Below, in pieces: positions 45,690 through 57,655 of a stretch of DNA of 64,000 nucleotides. Where the stretch lies: the NCBI RefSeq assembly GCF_020148005.1, contig NZ_JAGXFD010000001.1, positions 1,732,556 to 1,796,555 on the forward strand, written 5' to 3'. A model generated the notes under the pieces. It ran no database searches. It worked only from the letters and a program-made list of their open reading frames with translations, and had not been told where the DNA came from. The DNA is from Modicisalibacter tunisiensis. Lineage in GTDB: Bacteria > Pseudomonadota > Gammaproteobacteria > Pseudomonadales > Halomonadaceae. Every line of letters begins with the position of its first letter. Positions within the stretch are counted from its first letter, which is position 1. The translations under genes were made by a program, and so were the position numbers.

Positions 45690-45776
45690 GCCGGTGTGGC
45701 GGAATTGGTAGACGCAGCGGATTCAAAATCCGCCGCTAGCGATAGCGTGTCGGTTCGAGTCCGACCACCGGCACCA
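45690..45776 (+). tRNA. tRNA-Leu(CAA), phage attachment gene
   Basis: An 87-nt tRNA with acceptor GCCGGTG/CACCGGC, discriminator A and encoded CCA. The anticodon loop TTCAAAA is flanked by GCGGA/TCCGC, giving anticodon CAA (leucine). A class II long variable arm (CGCTAGCGATAGCG) and T-arm GGTTCGAGTCC are present. Its 3' half from the anticodon loop onward is also the left attachment site of the inovirus, which restores an intact gene. Confidence 0.95.
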
Positions 45777-45815
45777 TGAAATCAAGCACTTAGCGGTTCC
45801 TTCCTTGGCTTGGTT
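45722..45815 (+). repeat. attL direct repeat
   Basis: From the anticodon loop of tRNA-Leu onward, 79 bp are identical to 57512-57590. After one mismatch (T/C) another 14 bp are identical. The integrase stop codon lies inside this repeat. Confidence 0.92.
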
Positions 45816-46836
45816 CTTCTTCTTTTTCTGATGTGTCTACATTCTGTCTACGGACCTTCGGCGCGAATTTGATGGCGTCGGCGAGGTGGTCCGGGGATAG
45901 GTGCGCATAGCGCATGGTCATCTGAATCGTCTGGTGTCCCAGGATCTTCTGCAAGGTTAATACGTCACCGCCATTCATCATGAAGTGGCTGGCGAACGTG
46001 TGCCTGAGTACGTGAGTTCGTTGCCCCCTGGGCAGCCGAATGCCGGCTTCCTTGATGGCGTCCGAAAACGGATTGTATCCCGTGGTGGGAAAGACGCGGC
46101 CGATCCTGGGGGCGTGCTCGACCAGGGCGTAGTAGAGGCCCTGGGGGAGCGGTATGGTCCGGTTGCGGCCGTTCTTGGTGGCGACAAAGGTGACGCGACC
46201 GTCCCGCAGATTTTCGGCGCGAAGGTACTGTGCTTCCGACCAGCGTGCGCCGGTGGCGAGGCAGAGCCGGGTGATCAGCGCGGCGTCCTGATTGGGGCGG
46301 CGTTCCAGAATGGTCAGGAGCCGGTCGATCTGGTCTTCCGTGAGGTAGGCGAGTTCGCTTTCGTCCAGGCGCAGAGGCTGAATGCTGGCGAAGGGGTTGC
46401 CCTGGTCCCATTCACCGAGGCGAATGAGCTTGTTGAAAACGGCCCGAAGGTGCGCCTGATCGTGATTGGCCGTGCTGGGCGAAATGCCGTCGGCAAGCCG
46501 CTTTTGACGAAAGCGAGCCGCGTCCATCGCGGTGATGGTTCGGGCGATGGGGTTGCCCATCATGTCGGCCAAGGCGTTGATCTGTGACAGGCGGCGCTTG
46601 CCGTCCTTGAGCGAGACGCCGTGAAATTCGTACCAGAGGGTAATGAGTTCACGCAGGCGACGATTGTCCCGCTTCTTGGGCTGGTAGGGCTCTCCGGAGG
46701 CAGCCTTGCCGAACACGTAGGCTTCAAAGCGCTTGGCTTCGGCCTTGGTGCGCAGGGTCTTGCGTATCCGTTTGCCATCGCGGCCATGGGGCCAAATATC
46801 GACACACCATCCCGTCTTGGTCTTCCTGATGCCCAT
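45790..46836 (-). CDS. Phage tyrosine recombinase (integrase)
   Basis: A 348-residue tyrosine integrase that inserts the phage DNA into tRNA-Leu. Catalytic residues are visible in order: R in LATGARWSEAQYL, HxxR in THVLRHTFASHFM, the second H in LGHQTIQMTM, and Y in RYAHLSPDHL. The N-terminal arm-binding domain begins MGIRKTKTGWCVDIWPHG. Its last codons lie within the att repeat, as expected for an integrase encoded beside its site. It is separated by only 2 bases from the replication gene. Confidence 0.93.
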   Translation of the reverse strand: MGIRKTKTGWCVDIWPHGRDGKRIRKTLRTKAEAKRFEAYVFGKAASGEPYQPKKRDNRRLRELITLWYEFHGVSLKDGKRRLSQINALADMMGNPIARTITAMDAARFRQKRLADGISPSTANHDQAHLRAVFNKLIRLGEWDQGNPFASIQPLRLDESELAYLTEDQIDRLLTILERRPNQDAALITRLCLATGARWSEAQYLRAENLRDGRVTFVATKNGRNRTIPLPQGLYYALVEHAPRIGRVFPTTGYNPFSDAIKEAGIRLPRGQRTHVLRHTFASHFMMNGGDVLTLQKILGHQTIQMTMRYAHLSPDHLADAIKFAPKVRRQNVDTSEKEEEPSQGRNR

Positions 46837-46838
46837 GC

Positions 46839-48137
46839 CTAAGCGGCTCTCCCCAGGAGTCGCCGTTCGATCAATCGTTGCTCGACCAGCTGGCGGAACT
46901 CGTCCTTGCCGATCCCGCGACGGCGGTAGTATTCGGCGAGGTCGTCCCACATGCCGGAGCGTTGCAGATACCGGATGGCTTCATGGGTGCGGAAGCCCTG
47001 CCGGGCGTAGATCGAGAGCAGGTTGCCGAAGGCCAGGCAGACGTTCTTTTCGTTGCCGAGGCCGGGTTCCTTGCGCTTGCGCTTGTAGAGGAAGTGAGGC
47101 GCGTGGGCGTAGAACCGGGCGTCGTCCTGGAACAGTTGCCAGGCGGGGTCGATGAGGTTGCGGCAGTGATCCAGCCGGTAGCTCTGCAGGGCGGAACGCC
47201 ACAGGCCGGTGAGGTGGGGCACGGTGTCGGTGAAGCGGGCAAAGCCGTGGCCCATGTCGAGGGATTCGCCGGTGTCGACGTTGCAGGGCACGCCCTGGGC
47301 GAACTCGCGGAGCACGGACTGGTGAAAGCGCATCTCGATGCGCCAGACGTCGGCGTCGGGATCGTAGGGGGTGTCGAGGGGATCGTCGCCGCTGGCCTGT
47401 TCCCAGATGCCCTGCCAGAAGTGCAGCTTGTCGCGGCGGTGGGCTTCGCGGGTCTTGTTGTAGAGGGCGCATTGCAGGGCCCCGGCGGTGCCGAACAGGT
47501 AGCTTTGCCCGTAGGCGTACTGGGCGGCGACTTCGCCGCTGGTGATCTCCAGATCGGACAGGCCGTTGAGCTTAGTGACACGCTTGGAGCGGGTGACGAA
47601 GCGTTCCATGAAGTCGCGGGGTGGCTGCCAGCCCTGGACGTCGAGGGCGAGATGCACGGCGCAGCCGTGAGGCTCGGCATGGGCCAGCAGGTGGGCGGCG
47701 ATGGTGTCCATGAACGCCTGACACTGGTCGGGGCTGCGCTCCTGAATGAAGTGGGGCGAGAGCTCGACCTTCACGTGCGTGCCGAGGGTGTCGACCTTGG
47801 TGTGCCGGGCCTGGAGGAAGACGATGACGCCCAGGTCGTTGTTCTGCAGGCGGTAGCGGAAGCCCGAGCCGGCCGCCCCGGCCCCCACCGACCAGACGTG
47901 ATCGAACAGCACCAGGGTGGCGCCCCGACCTTCCTGATAGGCGCTGATGATGTGATCGAAGTGGGCCAGACAGGGCTTGCCGGTGTAGAGCTGGCGGACG
48001 GTGTCGACCCCCGCGTTGAGCAGGCGGATGCCATCGAGTTCGCGCTGTCCCTTGGGACTGATGAACAGCGTCCCGCGTGCATCCTGTTCGCCACGTTGCA
48101 GTGATTCCCGTGAATAGCGTTCCCAACGGTGATTCAT
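46839..48137 (-). CDS. Filamentous phage replication initiation protein
   Basis: A 432-residue protein at the place of the Pf replication gene (PA0727 type), between the structural genes and the integrase. The sequence resembles rolling-circle initiators of the Rep_trans kind: AVHLALDVQGWQPPRDF, then ALYNKTREAHRRDKLHFW and VWRIEMRFHQSVLREF, which is the family's tyrosine/glutamate-rich core. It would nick the double-stranded replicative form to start plus-strand synthesis. Assignment rests on position and motif style. Confidence 0.78.
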   Translation of the reverse strand: MNHRWERYSRESLQRGEQDARGTLFISPKGQRELDGIRLLNAGVDTVRQLYTGKPCLAHFDHIISAYQEGRGATLVLFDHVWSVGAGAAGSGFRYRLQNNDLGVIVFLQARHTKVDTLGTHVKVELSPHFIQERSPDQCQAFMDTIAAHLLAHAEPHGCAVHLALDVQGWQPPRDFMERFVTRSKRVTKLNGLSDLEITSGEVAAQYAYGQSYLFGTAGALQCALYNKTREAHRRDKLHFWQGIWEQASGDDPLDTPYDPDADVWRIEMRFHQSVLREFAQGVPCNVDTGESLDMGHGFARFTDTVPHLTGLWRSALQSYRLDHCRNLIDPAWQLFQDDARFYAHAPHFLYKRKRKEPGLGNEKNVCLAFGNLLSIYARQGFRTHEAIRYLQRSGMWDDLAEYYRRRGIGKDEFRQLVEQRLIERRLLGRAA

Positions 48138-48210: not shown

Positions 48211-48966
48211 CTACAGGGCGGGTCTCGCCAGCGTATACAGCCCGATCCACAGCGCGAGCAGGGCGAAGTGACCCGGATACCAGGCGAGCCAGAGCGCACG
48301 CGGCGGGGCACTGAGCCGGGGCAGACTGGGCAGCGTAGGGCGTTGGCTGAGGATGAGCAGCGCGGCGACGGTGGCCAGGCTGACGGTGGCGTTGAGGGCC
48401 CCAGCATTGATGAGCGCGCCCAGGGCCAGCACGGCGAGTTGCGGCAGCGGATGACCCCGGTAGTGGAAGGCGGCCCAGAAGGCGGGCACCAGCAGCAGGC
48501 CGAGGTGGGCGTACTCGAAGTGATCGCCGACGAGCAGCCAGACAACGACGGCGACCAGGGCGGCGGAATAGCGGTACCAGACGTCCTCGAGGCGCTGGAT
48601 GGCGGCGACGGTGAGCAGCCCGGCGGCCAGGGTGAAGCAGACGTTGAGCCGATCGACCGATTGCACCGCGAGATAGGGCAGCTGGGCGGCCAGGGCGATG
48701 AGCAGGATGCGTCCGGCATAGCGCAGCGGGTCGCGGGTGTTGTGGCAGGCGTGCCAGGCGACCATCCCGGCGAACAGCGGGAAGGCGACGCGCCCGGCGG
48801 TGATCGCCCAGGGGGTGACGGCGGCATCGGCCGGCAGCAGGAAGCGGCAGGCATGCTCGACGGTCATGGTGACCAGGGCGAGCCATTGGGCCAGCGGCAC
48901 CCAGGCATTGCGGGCGGCATCGGGACGGGACAGGACGGCGGTATCAACCGTGGATGCGGTGGTCAT
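48211..48966 (-). CDS. TraX family membrane protein in an inovirus
   Basis: A 251-residue polytopic membrane protein (about 7-8 helices) of the TraX family, whose founding member N-acetylates F-pilin. Recognisable segments are AQWLALVTMTVEHACRFLLP, GRVAFPLFAGMVAWH, RILLIALAAQLPYLAVQ, LNVCFTLAAGLLTV, HLGLLLVPAFWAAFHY and LAWYPGHFALLALW. The start overlaps the secretin stop as ATGA, so it belongs to the phage assembly operon. The likely substrate is the phage major coat protein or host pilin; this is inference. Confidence 0.85.
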   Translation of the reverse strand: MTTASTVDTAVLSRPDAARNAWVPLAQWLALVTMTVEHACRFLLPADAAVTPWAITAGRVAFPLFAGMVAWHACHNTRDPLRYAGRILLIALAAQLPYLAVQSVDRLNVCFTLAAGLLTVAAIQRLEDVWYRYSAALVAVVVWLLVGDHFEYAHLGLLLVPAFWAAFHYRGHPLPQLAVLALGALINAGALNATVSLATVAALLILSQRPTLPSLPRLSAPPRALWLAWYPGHFALLALWIGLYTLARPAL

Positions 48967-50222
48967 GAGGTGGCCTCCAGGGTGGGCAGGACGGTGGCTT
49001 GCAGCAGGACGTAGAGCTTGCGGTGCTGGGCGCTGGTCGAGGTGTTCTCGAACAACCGGCCGATCAGCGGCAGGGACGACAGGCCGGGGACGCCGGAGGT
49101 CTGCTGGCTGGTTTCATCGCTGACCAGCCCGCCCAGGAGCACGGTCTGGCCGGAGCGAATCTGCACGGTGGTGGTGATGCTGCGCTGGTTGGTGATGATG
49201 TCGCTGGCCTCCAGCGAGTCCGAGAGGCTGTCGGCCTGGGTCTGGACGTCCATGATCACCAGCCCGGCCCCGGTGACGACCGGGGTGACGGCGAGACTGA
49301 CCCCGACGTCGCGGCGTTCGATGGTCTGAAAGGGGTTCTCGACGCTGGCGGCCTGGCCGGTGACGCGCCCGGTGACGAAGGGCACGTTCTGCCCCACCGA
49401 GATGCGCCCGGCCTTGCCGGAGAGGGTGAGGATCTGCGGCGTGGACAGGACCTTGGCCTGGCTGTTGCGCTCCAGGGCGTTGACGGCCAGCGCGAGGACG
49501 TTGCCGTCGAAGATGCCGAACGAGCCGCCGGGGGTGGACAGGCTCGAGCCGAGGTTGTTGGTGTTCACGCCCCCGGCGAGCCCGGCCCCACTTCTTGCCC
49601 GTCCCAGGGCCACGCCAAGGTCGAAGGTGTCGCCATCATTGGTCTCGAACAGGATGGCGCGGATCAGCACCTGGGGCCGGGTGACGTCGATGCGCGGCAG
49701 CAGGCGTTGCAGGGCCTGAATGCGCTTTTCATCGCCGTTGACCAGCAGGGCGTTGGCGGCGGGGAGTACCTGACTGGCGGCGTTGCCCTGGGCGGCGGCG
49801 GTGCGACGGTTCAGGAAGGCATCGACCAGCGGCGTGACGTCGGCGGCGCGCAGATGATCGAAGCGCAGAATGGTGGTGGTCTGGGGCGTGCGCGGGCCGG
49901 TGTCCAGGGCCTGGGTGAATTCGCCGGGGGCTGTGGGCGTCACGGTGGGCGGCTCGCCGGGGACGATCTGATAGCCGTGGGCCTCGAGGACGCCGCGGAA
50001 GAAGGCGGGCAACTCGTCATCGGCCACGTCGGGGGCGTAGACGGTCAGGGTGCCGTCCACCGAGGGATCGAGGGCGAGCGCGGTGTGCGTTTTTTCCGAA
50101 TACCAGCGTACGAAATCTCGCACACTGGCGTCCTGCATTTCGATGGGGACGGCGTAGGCCATCGCCGACAGCAGGGCGAGGACAACACCGACAACGCTGC
50201 GGCTAGCAAGTGATCTGCACAT
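48963..50222 (-). CDS. Phage secretin (pIV-like outer membrane channel)
   Basis: A 419-residue secretin through which filamentous virions leave the outer membrane. A signal peptide (residues 1-24, ending AMAYA) is followed by N0/N1-type periplasmic domains. The secretin domain contains AKVLSTPQILTLSGKAGRI, VGQNVPFVTGRVTG and the C-terminal signature SGVPGLSSLPLIGRLFEN. It is shorter than host PilQ and lies inside the phage operon. The ATG at 50222, behind AGGGAG, overlaps the zot end by 20 bases. Confidence 0.92.
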   Translation of the reverse strand: MCRSLASRSVVGVVLALLSAMAYAVPIEMQDASVRDFVRWYSEKTHTALALDPSVDGTLTVYAPDVADDELPAFFRGVLEAHGYQIVPGEPPTVTPTAPGEFTQALDTGPRTPQTTTILRFDHLRAADVTPLVDAFLNRRTAAAQGNAASQVLPAANALLVNGDEKRIQALQRLLPRIDVTRPQVLIRAILFETNDGDTFDLGVALGRARSGAGLAGGVNTNNLGSSLSTPGGSFGIFDGNVLALAVNALERNSQAKVLSTPQILTLSGKAGRISVGQNVPFVTGRVTGQAASVENPFQTIERRDVGVSLAVTPVVTGAGLVIMDVQTQADSLSDSLEASDIITNQRSITTTVQIRSGQTVLLGGLVSDETSQQTSGVPGLSSLPLIGRLFENTSTSAQHRKLYVLLQATVLPTLEATS

Positions 50223-51270
50223 GATCGGCTCCCTGTTCGAGGCGGAGGTGACAGGCGTCCACCGGGACGAGACGTAGCCCCTGACGGGCGAGGTCGTCGC
50301 TGGTGGCAGGCCGGTTGTCGCCATCACGAAGGCGGTAGGTGGTGGTGTCGCCGAGGCGCGCATAGCCGGTGATGCGGTAGTCGGCGAAGTGGGTGAGATC
50401 GACCGGCGCGGTGGCCGGGGTGGGGGCGTTGTCGGCGCGGGCGTCGACCTGATCGACGAGCAGCACCGAGGTGGTCAGCACGATGCCCAGAGCGAAGCCG
50501 ACCAGGGCGAGCAGCGGGCGGTTGAAGCGTTTCCAGTAGATGCGCGTCAGTGTCATGACGAACCTCAGATCGCGGGGCACGCGAAGGCGGCCATGGGTGT
50601 ACCAGGGCGGCAGCTGGGTGTAGGTGCCGTGGGGGTAGTGATCGGAGAACGCCTGCTTGGTGTCGTAGGCCGGATAGAGCGAACGGCCGGTGTAGGTCCA
50701 GCGCTCGACCACCAGCGAGGTCGGGGAATCGCCATACTTGACGATGCCCATGTGCAGCTTGGGCATGGGCACCTTGCCGCCGGCGAACAGCGACCACAGC
50801 GAGCCGATGAACGGCAGCGAGAGACGATCCAGGCGACGGCAGTAGACGACATGCTCGGCCAGCGCGACGCGGGCCTGCTTGTCCATGATGGAGAGGTCCT
50901 GGATCAGGAAGATGATGTCCCAACCCAATTTCCGGGCGTGGAGAAACCAGTTGATGACGTCCTGACGGCTCTTGTCGTTCCAGCTGCGGGCGTTGAACCA
51001 GGTGCCGCACTCATCGAGGACCAGCAGGCCGTTTTTCGCCTCGTCGTAACTCTCGGTGCCCCGGCCGATGGACTCGAGATCGGGCAGGGTGGGCTTGTCG
51101 GGAATGCGGTAGAAACGGGTCTGCTTGGCGGTCGGCCCGATCAGCTTGTCGAGCCGGATATCCAGGTTGGTGGCGACCTTGCAGCCCCGGTTGAGCTTGT
51201 CCTTGATCTTGCCGACGGCGACCAGAGTCTTGCCCGCGCCGAGTTTGCCGGTGACGACGTAGACGGCCAT
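50203..51270 (-). CDS. zot: Zot/pI-family phage assembly ATPase
   Basis: A 355-residue inner-membrane ATPase that drives virion extrusion. The Walker A is TGKLGAGKTLVA at residues 7-18, the Walker B region is LLVLDECGTWFNAR, and one membrane helix (about residues 250-270, LALVGFALGIVLTTSVLLV) precedes a periplasmic tail with two cysteines. It is homologous to Vibrio CTX phage Zot and M13 pI. Its start overlaps the stop of the preceding gene by one base. Confidence 0.93.
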   Translation of the reverse strand: MAVYVVTGKLGAGKTLVAVGKIKDKLNRGCKVATNLDIRLDKLIGPTAKQTRFYRIPDKPTLPDLESIGRGTESYDEAKNGLLVLDECGTWFNARSWNDKSRQDVINWFLHARKLGWDIIFLIQDLSIMDKQARVALAEHVVYCRRLDRLSLPFIGSLWSLFAGGKVPMPKLHMGIVKYGDSPTSLVVERWTYTGRSLYPAYDTKQAFSDHYPHGTYTQLPPWYTHGRLRVPRDLRFVMTLTRIYWKRFNRPLLALVGFALGIVLTTSVLLVDQVDARADNAPTPATAPVDLTHFADYRITGYARLGDTTTYRLRDGDNRPATSDDLARQGLRLVPVDACHLRLEQGADHVQITC

Positions 51271-51620
51271 CAGATCCCCCCGAGATTGACGAGCCGATCC
51301 TTGATGGAGAAGGCCCACACGAAGAACTTGGCCATTACCAGGGCGGAGACGCAGGCGGCGAAGTTGTCGGGCAGGATGCGGCCGATGCCGTCGGCGAGCA
51401 GCGCGGGCATGGACGCGGACAGCCCCTGGACCAGGGCGTCGATACCGCTGGCCATGGCGGTGATCAGGCCGAGGACCACGCCCACCTTGACCAGGAACAG
51501 GCCGAAGCGGGCGACCTTGAACCAGAAGTAAAAGCGCAGGAACAGCTTGCCGAAGTTGAGCAGCAGGGCTTCCAGCGCGGGGACCAGAAGGCGGGCGAGA
51601 CGAGCGAGAATGGCACCCAT
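51270..51620 (-). CDS. Minor coat protein, pVI-like
   Basis: A 116-residue hydrophobic protein with three membrane segments (about 8-22, 32-56 and 90-108). It is in the position of Pf PA0725 and M13 pVI between the adsorption protein and Zot. pVI caps the virion end that carries pIII. No domain is recognised beyond this; the call is from size, topology and place. It overlaps zot by one base and follows the pIII stop by two bases. Confidence 0.75.
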   Translation of the reverse strand: MGAILARLARLLVPALEALLLNFGKLFLRFYFWFKVARFGLFLVKVGVVLGLITAMASGIDALVQGLSASMPALLADGIGRILPDNFAACVSALVMAKFFVWAFSIKDRLVNLGGI

Positions 51621-51622
51621 GC

Positions 51623-53092
51623 TTATCCCTCCGCCCCGTTGCGATAGGACAGGGCCATCATGGTGATCTGGTAGGTGGTGAAGAAGAACAGCAGCCACGA
51701 CAGCGCGGCCTTGATGAGATCGAAGACGCGGCACTCGATGGTCATGACGTGGCCGTTGAACTCGAAGGTCAGCGGGGTGCAGGTGCCTCCGCCGGGCAGG
51801 GTGGGCATCCAGCCGGTCACGGTGTCACGCACCGCGCCGACGGCCTGGCCAATGATGCTGCCGTCATCCTCGAACAACGTCTGATAACGGTCGTTCAGGT
51901 CGCCCTGGGTGGTGTCGTTCTGGCTGGTGAGATCGTTCATCACCTCGTCGCCGATGCCCTGACCGTCGAAGTCGGCGCGCACGGCGTCTTCCGTGGGCGC
52001 GCCGTCGGTGCTGGTGAAGGTGTCGACCAGCGATTGAAAGCCATCCTGAATCGATGCCTTCACGCCGCCGATGGCATCCAGCACGCCGCTCAGATCGGTG
52101 CCGGTGCCGGTGTCGGTGCCATCGGTGCTGCCGGAATCGGTGCCGGTTCCCGAGCCGGAATCAGTGCCCGTTCCTGAATCGGTACCCGAGCCGGCGTCGG
52201 TGCCGCTGCCGGCATCCCCCCAGCTACCCCCGCCGATGGACAGGCCGCCGCCGACCTCGATGGGATCGCCGCTGGCGTCATAGGCACCGTCGGTAACGGT
52301 GATGGGGTCGCCGTTGGCGTCGTAGGCGCCCTGGTCGTCCAGGGTGATCGGATTGCCGGCACTGTCGAAGGCGCCGACGTTGATATCGGCCGCATCGCCG
52401 GAATAGCAGTAATAGGACCCCCCGGAGCCGACGTAGCCGCCCGAGCAGGAGGACGGGTCGGTGGTTTCGGTGAAGGCGTCGGAGAGTTCGCCGCCGGATT
52501 CGACATTGCTGCCGCTGTCCAGGGTGTTGACCTCGCCGGTCGACGTGGCGGTGAAATCACCAGTCAGGTAGCACTGACCGTCAGGCGCGGTATCGCCGTT
52601 GGCATTGGTGGTGGTACAGACGCCGACCCCCTTGCCGGAGGGTGTCAGCGAGCAGGCGCCGGTGTTATAGGGCGGGGCTTCGAGCTCGCCCTTGAGAACG
52701 GTGGCGTGGCCGTATTCGGATTGGCATTCCTCATCCGAATACACGTAGTTATAAACAGGACTGGAAATGGAGCCATCCGCAATTCCCGTTTCAACATCAC
52801 TCGTCATACCATACGAATAATCAACGGCTACAACATAATAATTTCCACCAGAGCAACGGTCATCAGGACCGGAATACAAAACACCTATGCCACGAATCCA
52901 CCAAGGCGAGCTTTGCAAATACGACCGGCCTTCCAATAAAGACATACTTCCAGCAAGAGCCGAAGAATACGTACAGTAAAGTTGTGAATTGTCGGACTGA
53001 GTTTGGTTGGTTATACCTGCAGACGCATCCGATACGGAAAGAAAAAAGATCACCGGCACCAGGGCAACCAGGAACAAAAGGCGTCGAATCAT
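51623..53092 (-). CDS. pIII/CoaA-like phage adsorption protein
   Basis: A 489-residue virion tip protein. A signal peptide (1-25, ending DASA) leads to a Cys-containing N-terminal domain (about 26-135). Three GA(Y/F)DxxGxPI repeats (about 233-280) and a Gly/Ser/Thr/Asp stalk of the GSGTDSG type (about 285-330) follow. A C-terminal domain ends in a hydrophobic anchor (ALSWLLFFFTTYQITMMAL). This is the receptor-binding, stalk and membrane-domain plan of pIII. The DNA for the first 120 residues is about 40-48 % GC against about 70 % in the stalk, a sign of domain exchange. Confidence 0.88.
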   Translation of the reverse strand: MIRRLLFLVALVPVIFFLSVSDASAGITNQTQSDNSQLYCTYSSALAGSMSLLEGRSYLQSSPWWIRGIGVLYSGPDDRCSGGNYYVVAVDYSYGMTSDVETGIADGSISSPVYNYVYSDEECQSEYGHATVLKGELEAPPYNTGACSLTPSGKGVGVCTTTNANGDTAPDGQCYLTGDFTATSTGEVNTLDSGSNVESGGELSDAFTETTDPSSCSGGYVGSGGSYYCYSGDAADINVGAFDSAGNPITLDDQGAYDANGDPITVTDGAYDASGDPIEVGGGLSIGGGSWGDAGSGTDAGSGTDSGTGTDSGSGTGTDSGSTDGTDTGTGTDLSGVLDAIGGVKASIQDGFQSLVDTFTSTDGAPTEDAVRADFDGQGIGDEVMNDLTSQNDTTQGDLNDRYQTLFEDDGSIIGQAVGAVRDTVTGWMPTLPGGGTCTPLTFEFNGHVMTIECRVFDLIKAALSWLLFFFTTYQITMMALSYRNGAEG

Positions 53093-53163
53093 GGCGGGAG
53101 TCTCGGTACCGGGGGTGGAACGAAGAAGGGGGCCGGTGGGGCCCCCTCGTGGCGTGAGGCCGA

Positions 53164-53439
53164 TCAGGTGGCCTTGTTGGCGAACTTCTTGAACAGGCCG
53201 ATGGCCAGCAGCGAGCCGACGATGGCGGTGACGACGGGCCATGCCTGGCTGGCCATGTCGCTGGCCTGGGACTGCAGCTCGCTGAACGCCTGGGAGGCGG
53301 CGGAGGGATCGCTGGTGGTCGCGGAGGCGAAGCCGGAGACGACCAGGGCACCGGCCCCGGCGGTCATGGCGAGCGACTTGCGGCCGAGGGTGGCACGAAC
53401 GTGAGCGATGCGTTGCTTAGCTTGGGTTGCGATGGTCAT
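53164..53439 (-). CDS. Major coat protein (pVIII/CoaB-like)
   Basis: A 91-residue precursor. The leader of about 40 residues ends GFASA; cleavage gives a mature protein of about 51 residues with the pVIII plan: an acidic amphipathic start (TTSDPSAASQAFSEL), a membrane helix (AWPVVTAIVGSLLAIGLF) and a basic end (KKFANKAT) that binds DNA. The ATG overlaps the stop of the preceding micro-gene as ATGA. It is the probable filament subunit in thousands of copies. Confidence 0.92.
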   Translation of the reverse strand: MTIATQAKQRIAHVRATLGRKSLAMTAGAGALVVSGFASATTSDPSAASQAFSELQSQASDMASQAWPVVTAIVGSLLAIGLFKKFANKAT

Positions 53440-53546
53440 GTTGAGACTTCCATAAAGCGCTTGAAGGCAAGCATTGAGGTTCCCCACACCCAACCGAGGG
53501 CGTAGGCACTAATCAGGGAGCCGATGAGCTCGGGAACGGTCATCAT
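53436..53546 (-). CDS. Small minor coat protein, 36 residues
   Basis: A short gene encoding MMTVPELIGSLISAYALGWV and then a basic tail (AFKRFMEVST). It has one membrane helix and the size of M13 pVII/pIX. GGGGGG lies before the double ATG. It overlaps the upstream micro-gene by 4 bases and the coat gene by 4 bases, so the chain is translationally coupled. It lies in the place of Pf PA0722. Confidence 0.75.
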   Translation of the reverse strand: MMTVPELIGSLISAYALGWVWGTSMLAFKRFMEVST

Positions 53547-53655: not shown

Positions 53656-53973
53656 TTAACTGGTGGCTTTGACGTCGGCCTTGGGATGGCCGGTCGCAGA
53701 GGGCTTGCGTACGGCGATGGCGTGCATGGTCATCTTGCCTTGGGAGACGCGCATCTCGGCGTCGATCTCGAGGTTGCAGGGCATGTTGGGCGCGTGGGCG
53801 CGCAGCTGGTCGAGAATCTCGTAGGGCGCGGAGATGGTCATGACTTCGTGGCCGATGCGGTTCTCGTTGTCGGGATCGGCTTCGTTCATCAAGGTGATCT
53901 TGGCGCCCTTGATGCCGCCGTCCATGGAGTAGCGCATGGCGCCGAGAACGCGAGCCTGGATGGTGTTGATCAT
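53656..53973 (-). CDS. Phage single-stranded DNA-binding protein (pV-like)
   Basis: A 105-residue protein at the pV position of Pf phages (PA0720), upstream of the coat genes. It begins INTIQARVLGAMRYSMDGG and contains ISAPYEILDQLRAHAP and LEIDAEMRVSQGKMTMHAI, consistent with an OB-fold DNA-binding protein. pV coats new plus strands before assembly and shifts replication to single strands. The ATG at 53973 was preferred over an upstream start 13 codons away. Confidence 0.8.
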   Translation of the reverse strand: MINTIQARVLGAMRYSMDGGIKGAKITLMNEADPDNENRIGHEVMTISAPYEILDQLRAHAPNMPCNLEIDAEMRVSQGKMTMHAIAVRKPSATGHPKADVKATS

Positions 53974-53989
53974 GGTCTTCAGTTCCTTT

Positions 53990-54163
53990 TCAGCGTGTGT
54001 GCTGGGCTGCACGGGTTTGGCAGTGGTGAGCGAGCACGGCTAGCTCTGCGAGGTCCGGTGCGTCGGGGTCGAGCATCCGGGTCAGGTGTTCTGCCTGGGC
54101 GTAGAGGAGCGCGGCGTGGCCGTAGTCGCGGCCTTGCAGACACCGCGCGCCCCGCTCCCTCAA
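53990..54163 (-). CDS. Small phage protein of unknown function
   Basis: About 57 residues, soluble, helical: REALREQGARCL-like start (here LRERGARCLQGRDYGHAALL) then YAQAEHLTRMLDPDAP. The proposed start is a TTG at 54163 with GGAG nine bases upstream. The frame stays open to an ATG at 54343, but that part would run through the base-paired intergenic region and reads as low-complexity Pro/Arg/Gly. No family recognised. Confidence 0.45.
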   Translation of the reverse strand: MRERGARCLQGRDYGHAALLYAQAEHLTRMLDPDAPDLAELAVLAHHCQTRAAQHTR

Positions 54164-55225: not shown

Positions 55226-55349
55226 CTCGTCACCTGCCTTTGTAGGTCTGTGTTAGGCTTTTTTGAGGAAACAGCAGTGGCTGGGCTCTAAAACAGGTAG
55301 ACTCAAAAATGAGCACAGCCTATTGGGAAGTATACCCAGAGTAGGGCAC
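55226..55349. promoter_or_regulatory. Divergent control region of the phage
   Basis: This 124-bp gap separates the leftward excisionase-like gene and the rightward repressor. TTTTTGAG (55260-55267) and CTCAAAAA (55302-55309) form an 8-bp inverted repeat spaced by 34 bases. AGTATACCC near 55330 may be a -10 for the repressor. It is the expected operator region for the lysogeny switch. Confidence 0.5.
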
Positions 55350-55634
55350 ATGTCAAATAACCTTGCGCAAAAAATCCGGTTGATCCGAGAAGCGGAGACC
55401 TCAGGGCGCGCTGAATTTTCGGAACTCATTGGTGTGCCTAAGAAAACGCTGATAGGTATCGAGCAGACCGGGCGAGTACCAAAAGGGGATCTGTTGCAAG
55501 CGATATGTACGCAGTGGCCGAAGTACACGCTTTGGCTAATGACGGATCAGGTGAACGAAGCACTGGGCCAGATAAGCCCAGAGATAGAGAGGGCACGCAA
55601 AGACTTTAAGCCGACGGGAACGGATACCGAATAG
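55350..55634 (+). CDS. Phage repressor-like HTH protein
   Basis: A 94-residue protein with an XRE-like DNA-binding fold: NNLAQKIRLIREAETSGRAE, FSELIGVPKKTLIGIEQTGR, then QWPKYTLWLMTDQV, the YxLWLMTG-type end common in phage regulators. Opposite orientation to the structural operon fits the Pf repressor C role. The ATG at 55350 was preferred because the earlier ATG at 55263 would read through the operator. Immunity and superinfection exclusion are inferred. Confidence 0.72.
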   Translation: MSNNLAQKIRLIREAETSGRAEFSELIGVPKKTLIGIEQTGRVPKGDLLQAICTQWPKYTLWLMTDQVNEALGQISPEIERARKDFKPTGTDTE

Positions 55635-55732
55635 CCAAGCGGGTTGTGGATAGTTGGTATGTGAAGGGTGGGTAGGTGTGGGTAATTATATAAGACATAA
55701 GTAATAATAGGTTGCGCGCGAGGGGAAGCTAA

Positions 55733-56674
55733 GTGGATCCAATCGGTGAATTTCTCAACTCAGTAATGATATTGATTTTTGCATCAGCAACAGGCACCTG
55801 GTTTAGTCTTTGGCTGGGTGCTGGTGGGCGATTTTTTAAGGCTAGGCTGGCATTGTGCGCAGTCATTACGATAGTCGCTATTCTGCTATTGCTGAAAACG
55901 TCCTTGGTATTGCCTGTAGTCTTGGTGCAGGAATACCCCTTTATAGGATTCGTGGTGGTCACTATTGTTGTTTATGCTGCAATCGTTACGGTATGGGAGC
56001 CCATGGAATGGGGGCTAAAAAGGCGCCTTACCAGCCACCCCAAGCCCGCCCGCGCTGCGGATGGAAAGACGGCAGGGGCTGAGCTGCGAAGGGAATGGGA
56101 GCAGTTCAAACAGGGATGGCAGGAAGAGTCGAGGAAAGAGCCGACGATTGATCCAGACCCTGAGCCTAAGGGGAAAGAGTCGGCCCAGGAGTCAGCCGAC
56201 GAAGATATCTACGATCTCTATAAGCAGAATAAGTCCGAGCCCAGTAGTGATCGCAACTACTCCGAAGAATTGATGGACCAAGGCGGAGCCTATGTTGCCC
56301 GTACCCACCTGATGTCCCCCTCCGAACGTCAAGTATATAGGGTGTTGGAAAAGGCCTATGGTGACCGTTATCGAATTTTCTGCCAAGTGCGAGTGGTGGA
56401 TCTGATTCAACCAAATACGAAAAAGTATTTTAGTTGGACAAAGGAATATAAATCGTTATTTCGGCAGATTTCACAGTGGCACTTCGATTATGTGTTATGC
56501 GAGAAGAAAGATTTTAAAGTGAAGTGCGTGCTGGAACTGGATGACCAAAGTCATGAGCGGCCGGATCGAAAGAAGCGCGACAGAATTCTGAATCGAGCCT
56601 GCGAAGTGGCGGGTATTCGCCTGGAGCGGATGAAGATCAATCACACCGAGAAGCGTATCGAGATCATCCGGTGA
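55733..56674 (+). CDS. Membrane-anchored DUF2726 putative nuclease
   Basis: A 313-residue protein. About three hydrophobic helices occupy residues 8-30, 38-60 and 70-92, then a charged linker (about 95-180), then a DUF2726 domain: SPSERQVYRVLEKAYGDRY, FCQVRVVDLI, WHFDYVLCEKKDFKVKCVLE and LDDQSHERPDRKKRD. The D...ExD-type spacing is that of the PD-(D/E)XK restriction-endonuclease fold. The start is GTG behind GAGGGGAAG. Its DNA is clearly AT-rich (about 30 % GC at 56401-56460). Phage cargo, perhaps for defence, is inferred. Confidence 0.72.
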   Translation: MDPIGEFLNSVMILIFASATGTWFSLWLGAGGRFFKARLALCAVITIVAILLLLKTSLVLPVVLVQEYPFIGFVVVTIVVYAAIVTVWEPMEWGLKRRLTSHPKPARAADGKTAGAELRREWEQFKQGWQEESRKEPTIDPDPEPKGKESAQESADEDIYDLYKQNKSEPSSDRNYSEELMDQGGAYVARTHLMSPSERQVYRVLEKAYGDRYRIFCQVRVVDLIQPNTKKYFSWTKEYKSLFRQISQWHFDYVLCEKKDFKVKCVLELDDQSHERPDRKKRDRILNRACEVAGIRLERMKINHTEKRIEIIR

Positions 56675-56987
56675 ACTCGACCTCGACGTGACCGGGCTTG
56701 GAACGAGGACGCGAGGGGCCAACGACGATACGGACCTCACGACCCAGACGAGCGAGACAGTCGAGCATCTTGGCTTCGCTGATCCCGCGGAATTGACCAC
56801 GCAGCAGGCCGGAAAGCTTGGGCTGGGGAATCCCGACGATCTCGGCGGCCTTGGCCTGGGTAAGACGACGACGCTTTATGATCTCGGCGATCTTGGTGGC
56901 CAACTGAGCCTTGATCAGCATCTCGTCGGCGTCATTGCGACCGAGGTCGGCATAGACGTTGGTACTGCCTTGTTCGATGTCGATCAT
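56664..56987 (-). CDS. HigA-type antitoxin
   Basis: A 107-residue antitoxin with a central XRE helix-turn-helix (RRRLTQAKAAEIVGIPQPKL, residues about 39-58, then SGLLRGQFRGISEAK). It is expected to bind the toxin encoded just upstream and repress the shared promoter. The start overlaps the toxin stop as ATGA. Its 3' end overlaps the convergent DUF2726 gene by 11 bases. Confidence 0.85.
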   Translation of the reverse strand: MIDIEQGSTNVYADLGRNDADEMLIKAQLATKIAEIIKRRRLTQAKAAEIVGIPQPKLSGLLRGQFRGISEAKMLDCLARLGREVRIVVGPSRPRSKPGHVEVEFTG

Positions 56988-57352
56988 GACGAGGAACCTC
57001 TCAGGTGCTGTTCGACGGCCTTGAGCCGATCGCGGATCTTGTCCAGGTCGGGCTTGGGAGTGGCGATCCCGCTGCTGGACTTCTTCTGAAAGCAGTGAAG
57101 GACGTAGACGGCACCCTGGAACTTAACCGTGTAGACGGCGCGATAGGTGTCACCTTGGTAGTCTTCGACCACCTCGAGGACGCCAGCCGAACCGAAACCC
57201 TTGAGCGGCTTGGTCTGGCTGTGCTTGTTGCCGGTCTGCGCCTGATGGAGCGCGTAGCCGAAGACATCCTGAACGTCTTCCGGCATGGCAAGCAGGTCCT
57301 TCTTGCTGCTGGCAACCCAGTAGAGCGGTTTGATGGCATCCTCCGAATCCAT
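56984..57352 (-). CDS. RelE/HigB-type toxin
   Basis: A 122-residue toxin of the RelE/HigB group (phage Gp49-like): PLYWVASSKKDLLAMPEDVQ, LKGFGSAGVLEVVEDYQGDTY and YRAVYTVKFQGAVYVLHCFQ, then KKSSSG. Members cleave mRNA at the ribosome. Toxin before antitoxin is the higBA order. It lies next to attR, where Pf phages often carry an addiction pair that retains the provirus. Confidence 0.85.
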   Translation of the reverse strand: MDSEDAIKPLYWVASSKKDLLAMPEDVQDVFGYALHQAQTGNKHSQTKPLKGFGSAGVLEVVEDYQGDTYRAVYTVKFQGAVYVLHCFQKKSSSGIATPKPDLDKIRDRLKAVEQHLRGSSS

Positions 57353-57511: not shown

Positions 57512-57605
57512 TTCAAAATCCGCCGCTAGCGATAGCGTGTCGGTTCGAGTCCGACCACCGGCACCATGAAATCAAGCACTTAGCGGTTCCCTCCTTGGCT
57601 TGGTT
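57512..57605 (+). repeat. attR direct repeat, partial tRNA-Leu
   Basis: The displaced 3' part of tRNA-Leu (57512-57566) plus flank, 79 bp identical to the left copy, then one mismatch and 14 identical bases. The tRNA fragment lacks its 5' half and is not functional. Confidence 0.92.
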
Positions 57606-57655
57606 TCTCTGTATTTCCCCTCAGTGTCCACAAAATGTCCACGGCTCTTGCCAGT
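57582..57655 (-). pseudogene. Possible remnant of a second integrase C-terminus
   Basis: Beyond attR, the minus strand still resembles the 3' end of the resident integrase: CGTGGACATTTTGTGGACAC against CGTAGACAGAATGTAGACAC, and both continue to the ACCAAGCCAAGG of the repeat, with an indel between. This suggests an earlier, related element used the same tRNA and left its integrase tail. The match is short. Confidence 0.4.

What the first reader, a model, noticed from the sequence alone, without database searches (positions are those of the whole stretch)
48211..48966. TraX homologue inside a filamentous phage assembly operon
TraX acetylates the N-terminus of F-pilin. Here a full-length TraX-family protein is coupled by ATGA overlap to the phage secretin and is read with Zot and the coat genes. 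The mature major coat protein would begin with a small residue (Thr after ASA), an N-terminus an acetylase could use. The system may modify virion subunits, or host pili used as receptor, to change surface charge, immunity or superinfection.
Basis: partly seen in the sequence, partly recalled or inferred. Interest (0 to 1): 0.8.

Follow-up and report, generated by a model that had tools for sequence, protein, structure and literature searches.

The report
Phage enzyme likely capping coat protein
A thread-shaped bacterial virus carries a gene for a membrane enzyme of a family known to cap pilus proteins with an acetyl group, and comparison with related viruses suggests that here it may cap the virus's own coat protein instead.

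Summary
Confirmed: window 48211-48966 (minus strand) encodes a TraX-family (PF05857) membrane protein. Its start overlaps the secretin stop (ATGA), inside an ~11.8-kb integrated inovirus with 99-nt att repeats. TraX in filamentous phages is already in print (XacF1 ORF9; XaF13 ORF8 as TrbP); in Xanthomonas/Stenotrophomonas-type inoviruses it usually follows zot. This Halomonadaceae lineage has a separate TraX clade, after the secretin. New here: with TraX beside the assembly genes, the predicted mature coat N-terminus is Ser/Thr in 20 of 20 phages (lineage 1) and Ser/Thr/Gly/Ala in 69 of 69 called distinct coats (lineage 2); without it, mostly Gln, Ala or acidic (Ser/Thr/Gly in 2 of 65 and 1 of 11). 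pIII of the same phages lacks this bias. Best reading: TraX N-acetylates the coat, as F TraX does F-pilin; some TraX-less relatives may use Gln (pyroglutamate). Only six independent contrasts exist, mostly agreeing; suggestive, not significant. L341, with a Gln coat, has a TraX-family gene elsewhere in its contig. The host shows no F-type or VirB2-type pilin by Pfam search. The protein is below the F-TraX acetylase cut-off; activity is inferred. Interest 0.58; new variant of a known kind.

The parts
48211..48966 (-). TraX-family polytopic membrane protein, 251 aa, nine long helices in the model; start overlaps the secretin stop (ATGA)
   Evidence: PF05857 E 9.7e-22; AF2 model pLDDT 91.5, pTM 0.87; overlap
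48963..50363 (-). pIV-like secretin; the true start is probably the internal ATG of MCRSLAS, about 50225 (inference)
   Evidence: PF00263 E 8.2e-44, phrog_1012 E 5e-131
50203..51318 (-). Zot / pI assembly protein
   Evidence: PF05707 E 2.1e-37, phrog_1675 E 8.9e-156
51270..51734 (-). pVI-like minor coat protein (DUF5455)
   Evidence: PF17537 E 3.1e-6, phrog_1944 E 3.9e-21
51623..53242 (-). pIII-like adsorption protein by position (ORF start probably too far upstream)
   Evidence: no Pfam hit and no significant PHROG hit; similar ORF in the same place in related phages
53164..53493 (-). major coat protein gp8; predicted mature part 51 aa starting TTSDPS after ASA
   Evidence: PF19199 E 2.8e-19, phrog_1646; site prediction
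53656..54012 (-). small conserved phage protein in the place of the ssDNA-binding protein (function by position only)
   Evidence: phrog_22642 E 3.4e-59, unknown function
46839..48137 (-). protein in the place of the replication initiator (function by position only)
   Evidence: phrog_1159 E 6.9e-164, unknown function
45790..46950 (-). tyrosine integrase
   Evidence: PF00589, PF24624
45722..45820 (.). att repeat, one end, overlapping tRNA-Leu (45690-45776)
57512..57610 (.). att repeat, other end

Best explanation
The phage-encoded TraX is an inner-membrane acyltransferase that N-acetylates the phage's own major coat protein. Proposed steps: (1) the coat precursor inserts in the inner membrane and the host leader peptidase cuts after ASA, leaving a small residue (Thr here; Ser, Gly or Ala in relatives) at a periplasmic N-terminus (inferred; this is the F-pilin route); (2) TraX brings acetyl-CoA from the cytoplasm to the periplasmic face and caps that amine (inferred from the family); (3) the capped, uncharged subunit is packed by Zot and leaves through the secretin, whose genes are probably translationally coupled to TraX (inferred from the overlaps). 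Some relatives without TraX have a Gln N-terminus, which can cyclise to pyroglutamate and would cap itself (inferred). Shown: the gene, its place in two lineages with separate TraX clades, purifying selection in most pairs tested, and the association between an adjacent TraX and the coat's first residue. Not shown: any acetylation.
For: Lineage 1, 85 phages with distinct Zot: mature coat N-terminus Ser 16/Thr 4 in 20 of 20 TraX+; in 65 TraX-: Gln 28, Ala 27, Glu 5, Asp 2, Ser 1, Thr 1, Phe 1. Lineage 2, distinct mature coats: TraX+ Ser 54, Gly 9, Ala 4, Thr 2 (69 called of 70); TraX- Gln 5, Ala 5, Thr 1 of 11. No coat with TraX beside zot or secretin starts with Gln. Control: among lineage-2 TraX+ phages, pIII with a confident site is Ser/Thr/Gly in 3 of 55 distinct and Gln in 18 of 55 (TraX-: 0 and 3 of 9); in lineage 1 p3 shows no difference (6 of 17 and 8 of 22) and the secretin trend is the reverse (1 of 18 and 12 of 15). 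TraX forms separate clades in the two lineages yet each time follows the last assembly gene: a start codon lies on the Zot stop in 106 of 132 lineage-2 pairs, and the overlap is 4 nt in 26 of 30 lineage-1 rows. In-clade loss: L025 keeps a TraX 3'-end remnant and its coat begins with Ala. [quoted passage not shown] TmAT enzymes take acyl-CoA in from the cytosol, with the catalytic site at the extracytosolic face (PMC12423673, section 6 part 1). His38 and other family residues are 26 of 26. The host has no F/VirB2 pilin match.
Against: Few independent contrasts: lineage 2 gives 5 pairs (on average 4.0 same, 0.2 opposite, 0.8 tie; median p 0.125), lineage 1 gives 1 well-supported pair, so the association is not significant after phylogeny. 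Exceptions: TraX- phages with Ser (L029) or Thr (L316; L054, with a near-equal alternative site). L341, counted as TraX- with a Gln coat, has a TraX-family ORF on the other strand about 1.4 kb past its Zot; counting it as TraX+ would make one Gln among the TraX+ coats. Cleavage sites come from my own scoring, with close alternatives in some rows. Many TraX- phages start with Ala and have no obvious cap, so inoviruses in general do not need one. The residue aligned by me with the TmAT family's essential TMH1 Arg (usually Lys in TraX) is Gln27 here (12 Lys, 14 Gln in 26). The window protein is below both NCBIfam acetylase/TrbP cut-offs. Foldseek gave no match. TraX also occurs as an orphan host gene, so other substrates must exist.
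Confidence: 0.52

Rival explanations
1. TraX modifies the host surface (type IV pilus, or an envelope glycan as O-acetylating TmAT enzymes do) to change the phage receptor and exclude superinfecting phages.
For: The host has one type IV pilin match. The XacF1 authors linked ORF9 to pilus modification (PMC4076744, passages). TmAT proteins usually act on carbohydrates (PMC12423673, passages). In 27 Halomonadaceae genomes with this inovirus, the 15 whose phage lacks TraX all have a TraX match elsewhere (one, G291, partial), against 2 of 12 whose phage carries it, as if one TraX were enough.
Against: It does not predict the link to the coat N-terminus nor placement after the last assembly gene in two lineages. 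The genome pattern is confounded by genus: 14 of the 15 are one genus, of which 74 genomes are listed with a TraX. Type IV pilin N-termini are made on the cytoplasmic side and methylated (established knowledge).
Confidence: 0.19
2. TraX is a general membrane acyltransferase with another target (minor coat protein, lipid, small molecule) kept as a moron; the coat correlation is a clade effect.
For: TraX is present in 199 of 275 Halomonadaceae genomes, mostly outside this phage; it also sits near metal-resistance genes on a plasmid; independent contrasts are few; L341 has a Gln coat and a TraX-family ORF in the same contig.
Against: Overlap with zot/secretin recurs in two lineages, and the coat bias is absent in pIII.
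Confidence: 0.21
3. TraX is catalytically dead or serves as an assembly or insertion factor for the coat.
For: Gln at the position aligned with the family's essential Arg/Lys; overlap with assembly genes.
Against: His38, Arg59, Asn108, Tyr152, Tyr230 and His233 are invariant in 26 of 26 rows; dN/dS is 0.13-0.32 in 10 of 11 pairs; Gln at position 27 is shared by some chromosomal and by plasmid relatives.
Confidence: 0.08

Closest known systems
TraX-family gene of Xanthomonas/Stenotrophomonas filamentous phages (Cf1c cp5, XacF1 ORF9, XaF13 ORF8, SMA6 'trbP-related')
   Same: TraX-family protein encoded directly after zot, the assembly gene of the inovirus (XaF13: after a small ORF that follows its annotated zot). 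Pfam PF05857 was tested on the related contigs L195-L197
   Different: There it follows zot, and a profile of lineage-1 secretins found no secretin in the 152 lineage-2 loci; here it follows the secretin. Eight lineage-2 TraX proteins are 22-29% identical to the window's and the two form separate clades.
F-plasmid TraX, pilin N-acetylase
   Same: same Pfam family (F TraX membership from PMC12423673), similar size (248 and 251 aa), inner membrane; proposed substrate also a small LepB-cut membrane protein of a filament (PMC7555446, passages)
   Different: only 21 bits to the F-type TraX equivalog (cut-off 149); no F-pilin match in the host. The F protein itself was not aligned: its record was not held
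RP4 TrbP
   Same: listed as the TraX counterpart (PMC7690428, passage); the TrbP model is the best NCBIfam hit (40 bits)
   Different: below the cut-off of 206; RP4 pilin is cyclic (recalled), a different end product
TraX of rep_cluster_294 conjugative plasmids (pVIM-20710, pVb1978)
   Same: 41-42% identical to the window TraX and nested inside the Halomonadaceae phage clade
   Different: followed by a recombinase gene and, in pVIM-20710, about 6.6 kb from a TrbC/VirB2 gene
TmAT/AT3 acyltransferases (OafB, OatA, HGSNAT)
   Same: residue-x10-His in TMH1 comparable with the AT3 Arg-x10-His; conserved Gly and late Tyr (mapping inferred)
   Different: Gln in place of the essential Arg; Foldseek found no similarity to solved structures

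Membership tests
Pfam TraX (PF05857) | score over the curated cut-off along the full profile | tested here: met
   78.4 bits against 25, profile 6-215 of 217
F-type TraX pilin acetylase (TIGR02755) | score over the equivalog cut-off | tested here: not met
   21.3 bits against 149.35
F-type TraX pilin acetylase (TIGR02755) | encoded in a cell with an F-type TraA pilin | tested here: not met
   no TraA (PF05513) match in the genome, nor TrbC/VirB2 (PF04956)
F-type TraX pilin acetylase (TIGR02755) | acetylates an N-terminal Ala/small residue of a filament subunit | not testable with these tools
   needs mass spectrometry
TrbP (NF010454) | score over the subfamily cut-off | tested here: not met
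   40.4 bits against 206
TmAT superfamily | fold match to solved members | tested here: inconclusive
   confident model, but Foldseek PDB gave nothing at E<=0.001; the second aligner was not available
TmAT superfamily | TMH1 Arg/Lys-x10-His | tested here: inconclusive
   His38 26 of 26; position 27 Lys in 12, Gln in 14 of 26, Gln in the window
Inovirus (Tubulavirales) provirus | Zot/pI, secretin, gp8-type coat, minor coat, integrase and att repeats | tested here: met

The most novel reading that the evidence does not exclude
Filamentous phages repeatedly evolve an uncharged coat N-terminus in two exchangeable ways: an acquired TraX that acetylates a Ser/Thr/Gly/Ala start, or a Gln start that cyclises to pyroglutamate. 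The capping enzyme is coupled to the exit machinery so that subunits are capped as they enter assembly.
Probability: 0.33. Interest if true: 0.8.

Novelty: new variant of a known kind. Interest (0 to 1): 0.58.

Why it matters
If true, it would give a function to a gene that sits in Xanthomonas and Stenotrophomonas phage genomes as 'transfer protein' or 'TrbP', show a virus modifying its own filament subunit the way a conjugative plasmid modifies its pilin, and make one simple measurement (coat mass) decisive. It would also point to coat N-terminal charge as something selected in filamentous virions, which are used widely as tools.

Tried and rejected
Phage-database search with the window TraX gave one weak hit, a faecal contig (L085) whose nine listed ORFs include nothing that I recognise as inoviral. 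Host chromosomal TraX was examined as a pilus gene: among the ORFs printed around 7 loci I recognised no pilin, by eye and without a family search. The idea that the phage TraX replaces a missing host TraX (27 of 27 inovirus-bearing genomes have a TraX) was not kept as evidence: 14 of the 15 relevant genomes are one genus, of which 74 genomes are listed with a TraX (any without one may be among the 56 not listed), and 199 of 275 genomes have TraX anyway. Foldseek against PDB and viral models gave only meaningless matches. Paper searches for a capped filamentous coat and for Xanthomonas coat N-terminal sequencing listed nothing that looked relevant. From the listings I opened PMC4076744, PMC7555446 and PMC6992868 and not the others. 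An earlier, cruder cleavage score called Ala for the coats of L008, L011, L132, L171 and L173; the alignment and the second score give Ser. In lineage 2 the first score called Ile for 16 rows; the second calls none. Both scores were tuned by eye on these coats. Rows dropped: L042, L061, L072 (contig too short to judge TraX); rows with Zot scores of 500 or less and repeat fetches of the same locus; lineage-2 TraX-less loci with under 700 nt after zot or no coat found; Zot under 280 aa and the one uncalled coat; identical Zot rows collapsed. The TraX tree used every fourth lineage-2 hit over 240 bits and left out L008 and L171, whose reading frame breaks. Lineage-2 loci were fetched by TraX, so they cannot show how common TraX is; the Zot-based scans give that.

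Full report
What is there. The ORF at 48211-48966 on the minus strand is a genuine TraX-family protein (PF05857, 78 bits against a cut-off of 25). Its start codon overlaps the secretin stop as ATGA. It lies in an integrated inovirus bounded by a 99-nt direct repeat at 45722-45820 and 57512-57610, the first overlapping tRNA-Leu. The order on the minus strand is small conserved protein, gp8 coat, pIII-like protein, pVI-like protein, Zot, secretin, TraX, a phrog_1159 protein in the place of the replication protein, integrase.

Relatives, lineage 1. I took Zot relatives from viral contigs (80 best loci kept of 191) and from Halomonadaceae genomes (27 of 275 carry the Zot). In the Zot tree of 83 rows the 17 TraX-bearing rows cluster (3 changes needed, against 15.7 in shuffles) beside a 29-row TraX-less clade; the deepest forks there are unresolved, so the TraX-bearing rows are not shown to be one clade. 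In the TraX-less clade the complete loci run from secretin straight to rep. L025 sits among the TraX-bearing rows but lacks the gene; L185 has the same coat and arrangement. Between secretin and rep L025 keeps a stretch that reads like the TraX C-terminus (EARPSL-stop; compare EAARPAL-stop in L130), so it looks like a secondary loss.

Relatives, lineage 2. A profile search reached three further viral contigs (L195-L197) that are Xanthomonas/Stenotrophomonas-type inoviruses with TraX directly after Zot. The same gene is in Cf1c, XacF1, XaF13 and SMA6. A TraX-profile scan found 153 encoding stretches in viral contigs (best 80 kept as 78 loci). In Zot-based scans, which do not select for TraX, TraX follows the best-scoring Zot in 65 of 78 loci (7 without, 6 too short to tell) and in 13 of 25 (8 without, 3 too short, 1 uncalled), but in 0 of 5 (4 without, 1 too short). 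L320, one of the 7, has a second Zot that is followed by TraX. In 106 of 132 Zot-TraX pairs an ATG, GTG or TTG lies on the Zot stop. TraX of lineage 2 is one clade (SH-aLRT 99) and TraX of lineage 1 another with two plasmid TraX inside it (92 for the whole, not starred; the 14-row group that holds the plasmids 96). So inoviruses seem to have gained TraX at least twice, each time next to the last assembly gene.

Prior reports. XacF1 ORF9 was described as TraX-family and similar to an F-pilin acetylation protein, with a suggested effect on type IV pili (PMC4076744, passages read). XaF13 ORF8 was called a TrbP conjugational protein (PMC6992868, passage read). So TraX in filamentous phages is known. 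Searches listed no paper that looked like a report of coat acetylation by it; they cover only the open-licence library, and most listed papers were not opened.

The coat test. [quoted passage not shown] The same peptidase makes the N-terminus of leader-bearing filamentous phage coats (established knowledge). I predicted mature coat starts with a simple -3/-1 score of my own. Lineage 1, 85 rows with distinct Zot: TraX+ Ser 16, Thr 4 of 20; TraX- Gln 28, Ala 27, Glu 5, Asp 2, Ser 1, Thr 1, Phe 1 of 65. Lineage 2, distinct mature coats: TraX+ Ser 54, Gly 9, Ala 4, Thr 2 and one uncalled of 70; TraX- Gln 5, Ala 5, Thr 1 of 11. No coat with TraX beside zot or secretin starts with Gln. TraX+ here means beside those genes: L341, a TraX- row with Gln, has a TraX-family ORF on the opposite strand about 1.4 kb beyond its Zot, and it counts against the rule if that gene serves the phage. 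As a control, pIII of lineage-2 TraX+ phages, where a site could be called, shows no such bias (Ser/Thr/Gly 3 of 55 distinct, Gln 18 of 55; TraX-: 0 and 3 of 9). In lineage 1, p3 is Ser/Thr/Gly in 6 of 17 TraX+ and 8 of 22 TraX-, and the secretin trend is the reverse of the coat's (1 of 18 against 12 of 15). Among the proteins tested the bias is seen in the coat only.

How strong is it. Phylogeny leaves few independent contrasts. Lineage 2 gives five pairs, on average 4.0 in the expected direction, 0.2 opposite, 0.8 tied, median p 0.125; for Gln alone, 1.8 in the expected direction, 0 opposite and 3.2 tied. Lineage 1 gives one well-supported pair, in the expected direction in 196 of 200 pairings. 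This is suggestive only. TraX-less exceptions are L029 (Ser), L316 (Thr) and L054 (Thr, with a near-equal alternative site).

Can the protein do it. The AlphaFold2 model is confident (pLDDT 91.5, pTM 0.87) with nine long helices. Loop charges fit a cytoplasmic N-terminus. His38, Arg59, Asn108, Tyr152, Gly156, Tyr230 and His233 are invariant in 26 of 26 aligned TraX proteins; by helix direction His38, Arg59, Asn108 and Tyr152 would lie toward the periplasm (inference, no coordinates measured). AT3 enzymes have an Arg-x10-His motif in TMH1, and in TraX the Arg is usually Lys (PMC12423673, section 6 part 1). In the window it is Gln27-x10-His38, with Gln in 14 and Lys in 12 of 26 (my alignment of the two motifs), which is a caution. 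The protein falls below the NCBIfam cut-offs for F-type TraX and TrbP. Structure searches returned nothing usable.

Other substrates. The host genome has one type IV pilin match and no TraA or TrbC match, so an F-like pilin is not a likely target here. TraX is common in the family (199 of 275 genomes), mostly outside this phage. Around seven chromosomal copies I recognised no pilin by eye. The family probably has other substrates too, and receptor modification stays open.

Verdict. The best-supported mechanism is N-terminal acetylation of the phage's own coat (0.52), with host-surface modification, another target and a non-enzymatic role as rivals. Nothing here shows acetylation; one mass measurement would decide.

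Noticed in passing
window 55263-57352: Prophage cargo between an HTH-like gene (55263-55634 +, weak match) and the far att repeat: a DUF2726 protein (55733-56674 +) and an HTH_37 / Gp49-like pair resembling a toxin-antitoxin module (56664-57352 -); no PADLOC hit among the four cargo proteins scanned.
   Followed up: partly
L008 6167-6976 and L171 4316-5125: TraX of these two fetches (identical TraX) runs out of frame in its last third, so TraX may be broken in one member of the clade while the coat still starts with a small residue.
   Followed up: no
L341 8685-9335 (-) and L342 4545-5195 (-): A TraX-family ORF on the strand opposite to Zot, about 1.4 kb past it, in contigs counted as having no TraX next to zot; the coat of L341 starts with Gln. 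Whether this gene belongs to the phage is open.
   Followed up: no
L137 8989-9720, L138 6974-7714: TraX of rep_cluster_294 conjugative plasmids nests inside the Halomonadaceae inovirus TraX clade, suggesting phage-to-plasmid transfer of the gene; the plasmids also have a TrbC/VirB2 gene.
   Followed up: partly
Halomonadaceae genomes, e.g. L123, L125, L128, L135: Orphan chromosomal TraX genes in differing neighbourhoods with no pilin gene recognised by eye; their role is unknown.
   Followed up: partly
L140 3950-4753: A TraX-family gene near nickel/cobalt efflux and HupE/UreJ genes on an IncC plasmid, another hint of non-pilus roles.
   Followed up: no
L201 576-761: The annotated major coat ORF of XaF13 appears to be in the wrong frame; the overlapping frame encodes a TGGGGVDVGDVV-type coat.
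   Followed up: no
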